42,474 bases of DNA, from contig CAMWIR010000008.1 in NCBI GenBank assembly GCA_947174365.1, forward strand, positions 1 to 42,474, read 5' to 3'. Every line of letters starts with the position of its first letter. The stretch's first letter is position 1. This document shows, in pieces, positions 37,626 to 38,214 of this stretch. Below the pieces are notes generated by a model that was not told the origin of the DNA, made no database searches, and saw nothing but the letters and a program-made list of their open reading frames with translations. The DNA is from an uncultured Ruminococcus sp. (GTDB lineage: Bacteria > Bacillota > Clostridia > Oscillospirales > Ruminococcaceae). Both the position numbers and the translations under genes were made by a program.

Positions 37626-37641
37626 TAGAGGCAAGATATTT

Positions 37642-37686
37642 AAGAGGCAAGAGGCAAGAGGTGTAGGCTTGCAATCTTGCCTTTTT
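37642..37686 (+). terminator. intrinsic terminator at the end of the flagellar operon, built from heptad repeats
   Basis: AAGAGGCAAGA ... TCTTGCC (37675-37681) followed by TTTTT. Confidence 0.7.
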
Positions 37687-37709
37687 GGTTTTTGAAAGCG
37701 AACAAAGAG

Positions 37710-38214
37710 CACTCACTCCACTCGGGTTCCAAGGGCGGAGCCTTTGGCGGGTCAAGGGCAGCGCCCTTGCGGGGGTCGGGGGGCAGCGCCCCCTTGGCAC
37801 TAACATAGTGTTGCAAACTAAAGCACAACGCAGCAAAGTAACGCCAACCGCCGCCCGACGTCAAGAAAAGGGGTCAAGTGAACTAACGTTATATTTGTAA
37901 TGTTACAGATTAAAACAAACCCACGTCGGGCGGCGGTGCAGCATAGAACGTGCGGCGAATGCCGTGCGTTCATGCTGCCGCCCGTAAGGGCGAAGTCGCT
38001 GACTGTTGAGAACAAAGTAAAGCGATATATCAAGCAAGTAATGCCTTATTATATGGGCAAATAAGGGTGACGGCTCGGCAAAAGCCTCGGCGGTGACGCT
38101 TGCCGTCACCTATTGCGCCCTTACGGGCGGCGCATTTGGGGGTTCTCCTGAAGTGCTTTCTGTATGGCGGCTGTCAGAGGGGGCTCCGCCCTTGGAACCC
38201 GAGTGGCGTGAGTG
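37710..38214. mobile_element. MITE-like / structured non-coding element with 33-bp terminal inverted repeats
   Basis: CACTCACTCCACTCGGGTTCCAAGGGCGGAGCC (37710-37742) versus reverse complement of 38182-38214 (CACTCACGCCACTCGGGTTCCAAGGGCGGAGCC): 32/33 match; no credible CDS inside. Confidence 0.6.

What the first reader, a model, noticed from the sequence alone, without database searches (positions are those of the whole stretch)
37710..38214. ~505-bp non-coding element with 33-bp near-perfect terminal inverted repeats between cheD and uvrC
Termini match 32/33 in inverted orientation, with weaker similarity continuing outward (AAAGCGAACAAAGAG / AAAGCACCCAAGCG). The left end holds three consecutive GC hairpins (37729-37747; 37753-37769; 37779-37793). 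There is no transposase and no credible ORF. This resembles a MITE or a REP-like structured repeat; hairpins of the type AAGGGCNGNGCCCTT are, to my recollection, common between genes in Ruminococcaceae, but the full element with TIRs may not be described.
Basis: partly seen in the sequence, partly recalled or inferred. Interest (0 to 1): 0.66.

Follow-up and report, generated by a model that had tools for sequence, protein, structure and literature searches.

The report
Structured hairpin repeats placed after genes
The inverted repeat between cheD and uvrC is one copy of a repeated, strongly folded non-coding element that sits just after genes and points the same way they do in several genera of Ruminococcus-like gut bacteria, and no known transposase or RNA family explains it.

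Summary
In detail: 32 of 33 bases match in inverted orientation, and the region folds far better than shuffled sequence (z = -13.8). The interpretation needs changing. The repeating unit is not a TIR-bounded MITE but a one-ended cassette of about 300 nt: three GC hairpins, a linker, a GC stem with a loop of about 65 nt, a covarying hairpin, a GTAA-loop hairpin and an A-rich tail. The "TIRs" are the 5' ends of two cassettes facing each other; the right-hand one is truncated. Many copies carry one cassette and one end only.

The genome has roughly 40 copies. Related cassettes occur in congeners, and diverged ones with the same architecture in at least three other genera of the family. Empty and occupied versions of the same sites exist, so the element is gained or lost. 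Cassettes nearly always point the same way as the gene just upstream (28 of 31 distinct sites). Compensatory changes and G-U-biased wobbles suggest selection on the folded RNA. I found no target-site duplication, no RAYT and no Rfam match. Best reading: a non-autonomous mobile repeat, constrained as RNA, occupying gene 3' ends. How it moves and what it does for the host are unproven.

The parts
37646..37686 (+). Intrinsic-terminator-like hairpin plus TTTTT after cheD, upstream of the element
   Evidence: stem-loop -15.7 kcal/mol followed by T5
37695..38005 (+). Left, complete unit (5' end, three hairpins, linker, long-loop stem, D hairpin, tetraloop hairpin, start of tail)
   Evidence: multi-copy blastn matches; covariance-model match
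37705..37742 (+). 5' end of left unit = left 'TIR'
   Evidence: 38-nt inverted arm, 95%; recurs in about 70 places
37729..37747 (+). Hairpin 1, CCAAGGGCGGAGCCTTTGG
   Evidence: sequence
37753..37769 (+). Hairpin 2, CAAGGGCAGCGCCCTTG
   Evidence: sequence
37778..37793 (+). Hairpin 3, GGGGGGCAGCGCCCCC
   Evidence: sequence
37794..37847 (+). A-rich linker; comes in at least two exchangeable versions among copies
   Evidence: comparison of copies
37848..37936 (+). Long-loop stem: CCGCCGCCCGACGTC...ACGTCGGGCGGCGG, 87-91 nt in all copies of G000, G005 and G007
37938..37978 (+). D hairpin, with compensatory changes at 13 of 18 pairs
37979..37992 (+). Short hairpin CGCCC-GTAA-GGGCG (tetraloop GTAA/GCAA/GTGA in other copies, one GTCA)
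37993..38104 (.). Centre between the two units
   Evidence: in full copies this stretch lies between the mirrored halves, e.g. L066
38105..38229 (-). Right unit, inverted and truncated: long-loop stem and D hairpin missing, joined at the shared word GCCGCCCG
   Evidence: sequence of the reverse complement; same junction in L034 and L005
38182..38219 (-). 5' end of right unit = right 'TIR'

Best explanation
It is a copy of a dispersed, non-autonomous repeat whose unit is a one-ended, multi-hairpin cassette of about 300 nt. Shown: the units are many, they are gained or lost at particular sites, they lie just downstream of genes in the gene's own direction, and their hairpins are kept by compensatory change. 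In the window, one complete unit follows cheD and its terminator, and a second, truncated unit lies opposite it next to uvrC; together they look like one element with terminal inverted repeats. Inferred: the unit is transcribed with, or by read-through from, the upstream gene; its folded RNA is what selection preserves; an unidentified enzyme acting in trans spreads it; and recombination between copies or between its short internal repeats produces the mosaic, short and long forms.
For: Multi-copy: 110 blastn pieces in the genome. One-ended units. Sense orientation downstream of a gene: 31 of 34 units, 28 of 31 distinct sites (p = 5e-6), and 13 of 16 further units in other lineages. Gain or loss: ftsZ site occupied in G000 and G005 but empty in 12 other species; icd site occupied in G005, G008 and G011, a remnant in G000 and empty in others; trpE site occupied in G005 and G007 but empty in G000. 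RNA constraint: 15 pairs with two-sided changes, covariation 0.245 against 0.122 shuffled and at most 0.072 slid; 25 G-T against 2 A-C wobbles in 30 distinct D hairpins. Same architecture in other genera, with covariance models matching in both directions. Mosaic and short/long forms at one site: cheD-uvrC 505 bp in G000 against about 100 bp in G005, and the reverse at G000:C84/G005:C196.
Against: No transcript data. No mobilising enzyme found. No target-site duplication. Copies are related by descent and by exchange, so covariation and wobble counts are not independent events; strand-biased mutation could also give G-T over A-C. In two-unit copies one unit is antisense to its neighbour on at least one side. 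Seven of 38 units lie behind an intrinsic terminator (the script scored six, and L162 is clear by eye), so they would be transcribed only by read-through. Orientation used simple gene calls.
Confidence: 0.6

Rival explanations
1. A classical MITE: a deletion derivative of a DNA transposon, moved by a DDE transposase that recognises the 33-38 bp inverted ends.
For: Inverted ends, many copies, empty sites, no internal ORF.
Against: Many copies have only one end; no target-site duplication above random pairing, 6.3 against 6.5; strong orientation relative to genes is not expected; G008 units show no terminal inverted repeats by eye; no copy with a transposase seen.
Confidence: 0.15
2. A host-beneficial 3' mRNA element (stabiliser or processing site) rather than a selfish repeat: units protect upstream mRNA from 3' exonucleases or set RNA ends.
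For: Sense orientation directly after stop codons, strong hairpins first, RNA-type covariation, 31 of 38 units without an intrinsic terminator before them.
Against: Closely related species lack the unit at the same genes (ftsZ, icd, trpE), so the host gene does not need it. The unit can sit inside an operon (trpE-pabA).
Confidence: 0.3
3. An intrinsic transcription terminator or bidirectional terminator array.
For: GC hairpins at gene ends; some two-unit copies lie between convergent genes.
Against: No T-run follows the unit hairpins; it lies between trpE and pabA in G005 and G007; several units follow a separate intrinsic terminator.
Confidence: 0.1
4. REP/BIME family member moved by a RAYT.
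For: Mosaic of palindromic modules in intergenic regions.
Against: No Y1_Tnp (PF01797) in G000 (99.7% complete), G005, G007 or G008, while the search works in controls. Unit much larger than a REP.
Confidence: 0.05

Closest known systems
REP / BIME / REPIN repeats with RAYT transposases
   Same: Intergenic, palindromic, multi-copy, mosaic of modules, non-coding
   Different: Unit about 300 nt with six or so hairpins, no RAYT in carriers, strong sense orientation to the upstream gene, conserved long-loop stem
Bacterial MITEs (e.g. RU-1/2/3 in enterobacteria, PMC2759123; Correia and RUP type elements, from memory)
   Same: Short, non-coding, dispersed, empty sites, inverted ends in some copies
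   Different: One-ended units are common, no target-site duplication found, no transposon with matching ends found
bcr1-type and other stem-loop repeat families of bacteria (PMC2267715 surveys such families)
   Same: Non-coding stem-loop repeat families that may be transcribed
   Different: Not tested against those families directly except through Rfam, which gave no match
Group IIC introns (from memory)
   Same: Sense insertion just after terminators or gene ends, RNA-level structure
   Different: No group II intron match in Rfam; most units not behind a terminator

Membership tests
MITE | Terminal inverted repeats bounding every copy | tested here: not met
   one-ended copies L003, L009, L054, L114
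MITE | Target-site duplication | tested here: not met
   longest flanking direct repeat 6.3 nt against 6.5 nt for shuffled partners, 14 copies
MITE | Autonomous transposon with the same ends | tested here: inconclusive
   none in about 70 sampled ends; genome is fragmented and contigs break at copies
MITE | Empty sites in relatives | tested here: met
   ftsZ, icd, trpE sites
REP/BIME | RAYT (Y1_Tnp) in the genome | tested here: not met
   PF01797 absent from G000, G005, G007, G008; found in 5 of 14 controls
REP/BIME | Mosaic of palindromic modules | tested here: met
   exchanged linkers and hairpin versions, short and long forms
Group II intron | Catalytic core recognised by Rfam models | tested here: not met
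   no such match
Any Rfam RNA family | Match above the gathering score | tested here: not met
   none for the window element or eleven related loci; only sub-threshold chance matches
Structured RNA (general) | Compensatory base-pair changes beyond controls | tested here: met
   15 pairs, 0 of 500 shuffles; slid controls at most 5 pairs
Structured RNA (general) | Expression in the modelled strand | not testable with these tools
   no RNA-seq available

The most novel reading that the evidence does not exclude
A family-wide class of mobile RNA cassettes in Ruminococcaceae-type bacteria that places itself at gene 3' ends in the sense direction, keeps its RNA architecture over several genera while its sequence turns over, and moves by a mechanism other than RAYT or TIR transposition, possibly through an RNA intermediate.
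Probability: 0.3. Interest if true: 0.8.

Novelty: new variant of a known kind. Interest (0 to 1): 0.6.

Why it matters
Dispersed repeats in gut Firmicutes are little described. This one combines three things not usually seen together: presence/absence at sites like a mobile element, strict orientation to the gene upstream, and covariation like a functional RNA. The icd and trpE sites (occupied in one species, empty or nearly so in its sister) and the ftsZ site (occupied in two species, empty in 12 others) make both its effect on gene expression and its mode of movement directly testable. It also breaks assemblies of these genomes.

Tried and rejected
Rfam search of the element and eleven related loci: nothing above threshold. 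RAYT search: absent. Phage, plasmid and viral collections: no match. Target-site duplications: none; a TAACCGA pair at the trpE site looked promising but stands alone. The order-wide pattern GCCGCCCG-N-CGGGCGGC was at control level outside G000, so that motif alone is not diagnostic. In one search the weakest matches in single genomes (L295, L297, L298) show no such architecture and I discount them; L296 is uncertain. Literature searches for repeats of this kind in Ruminococcaceae found nothing relevant, within an open-licence library only.

Full report
Check of the observation. The two ends match at 32 of 33 positions in inverted orientation, the arms extend to 38 nt, and all 11 exact 16-nt inverted pairs within 1 kb in the whole window lie in this element. 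The region folds at -294.9 kcal/mol, z = -13.8. It contains no credible gene. The element starts shortly after an intrinsic-terminator-like hairpin behind cheD (37646-37686) and ends 24 bases before the uvrC start codon.

Copies. A blastn search of the own genome gave 110 matching pieces; with two end-sequence searches I count roughly 40 places, some of which are two halves of one site split by a contig end. Four of 61 genomes searched had blastn matches, all in the same genus (G000, G005, G007, G008). No match in viral, phage or plasmid collections.

Anatomy. Aligning copies shows that the repeated thing is a unit with one defined end: GAGCACACACTCCACTCGGGTTCC, three GC hairpins, an A-rich linker in at least two exchangeable versions, a stem of GCCGCCCG type with a loop of about 65 nt (total length 87-91 nt in every copy), a hairpin here called D, a short hairpin with a GTAA loop (GCAA or GTGA in some copies, GTCA in one), and an A-rich tail. 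Many copies have one unit and one end (L003, L009, L054). Others have two units facing each other (L066, L046). The window has a complete left unit and a truncated right unit. The right unit lacks the long-loop stem and D hairpin, and its junction falls in a word, GCCGCCCG, that occurs at both points in complete units; the same junction occurs in L034 and L005. So the 'terminal inverted repeats' are two unit ends, and the truncation looks like a deletion between short repeats (inference).

Same site, different content. G000 and G005 are about 91% identical in DNA over most shared flanks. At cheD-uvrC, G000 has 505 bp and G005 only about 100 bp with the same outer ends; at G000:C84/G005:C196 it is the other way round. 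G007 carries a diverged unit at cheD-uvrC, of the second long-stem type. This is mosaic turnover at fixed sites, as in BIMEs.

Gain and loss. After ftsZ, G000 and G005 have a terminator and then a unit; 12 other species have no unit. After icd, G008 has a complete unit of its own sequence type, G005 and G011 have the starts of units at contig ends, G000 keeps only a remnant of the end, and other species are empty. Between trpE and pabA, G005 has a unit, G007 has one, and G000 has a short empty spacer. At the G000:C16 site G005 has no unit. No target-site duplication stands out against shuffled partners.

Orientation. With the hairpin end counted as the front, the gene upstream of the unit reads in the same direction in 31 of 34 units: 15/17 in G000/G005, 6/6 in G007, 6/7 in G008, 4/4 in genus g143. 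Counting each site once gives 28 of 31, p = 5e-6. In 16 further units from other genomes it is 13 of 16. The counts rest on a simple hexamer gene caller. Counted per end rather than per unit, 43 ends face an incoming gene and 24 do not; a weaker bias is expected there because two-unit copies carry one end each way. Most units (31 of 38) have no intrinsic terminator between the stop codon and the unit; 7 do (the script flagged six, and the seventh, L162, is visible in the printed sequence).

RNA-level constraint. On 33 units, 15 of 35 pairs have changes on both sides with pairing kept; 98% of cells pair; the covariation score is 0.245 against 0.122 for shuffles and 0.014-0.072 for slid structures. 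In 30 distinct D hairpins there are 25 G-T and 2 A-C wobble positions on the unit strand, as expected if the RNA of that strand is what matters. Relatedness and exchange among copies mean these are not independent events.

Wider family. A covariance model from the 33 units matched 2 of 249 family genomes beyond the own one, both of genus g143, where loci show repeats with hairpins, linker, long-loop stem, D-like hairpin, short hairpin and tail in the same order but otherwise different sequence. A model from those five units matched back to G000 (E = 3e-6) and reached G720, G202 and G634, with the same order of parts. G008 has its own version of about 420 bp with an 88-nt long-loop stem. Homology across genera is likely but rests partly on rough E-values and on shared architecture.

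Interpretation. The best single account is a non-autonomous mobile repeat constrained as RNA and tolerated or favoured just after genes. Gain/loss, position, orientation and structure are shown from sequence; transcription, benefit to the host and the mobilising enzyme are inferred or unknown. RAYT-type mobilisation is unlikely and group II intron identity is not supported.

Noticed in passing
window 37628-37662; also upstream of L002, L012, L110, L128, L075: Degenerate short tandem repeats (AAGAGGCAAGAGG, AGAGGTTAGAGG) often lie between the stop codon and the unit; possibly part of the 5' end or a preferred target.
   Followed up: no
G005:C178 (L283), orthologous to G000:C16 unit site: In place of the unit, G005 carries a small gene of unknown function between the same flanking genes.
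   Followed up: no
L010, L024, L025, L161: Several D hairpins carry an inserted GTGCAACTTTAGTTGCAC hairpin, a further exchangeable module.
   Followed up: no
L181, L182, L187, L293, L303: In genera g143 and g90 the D-like hairpin keeps an internal motif close to GACAGCGAAGCGAATC, which may be a protein-binding or tertiary-contact motif.
   Followed up: no
G000 contig ends (C11, C19, C74, C91, C172 and others): Many contigs of this assembly end inside copies of the element, so assemblies of these species break at it.
   Followed up: partly
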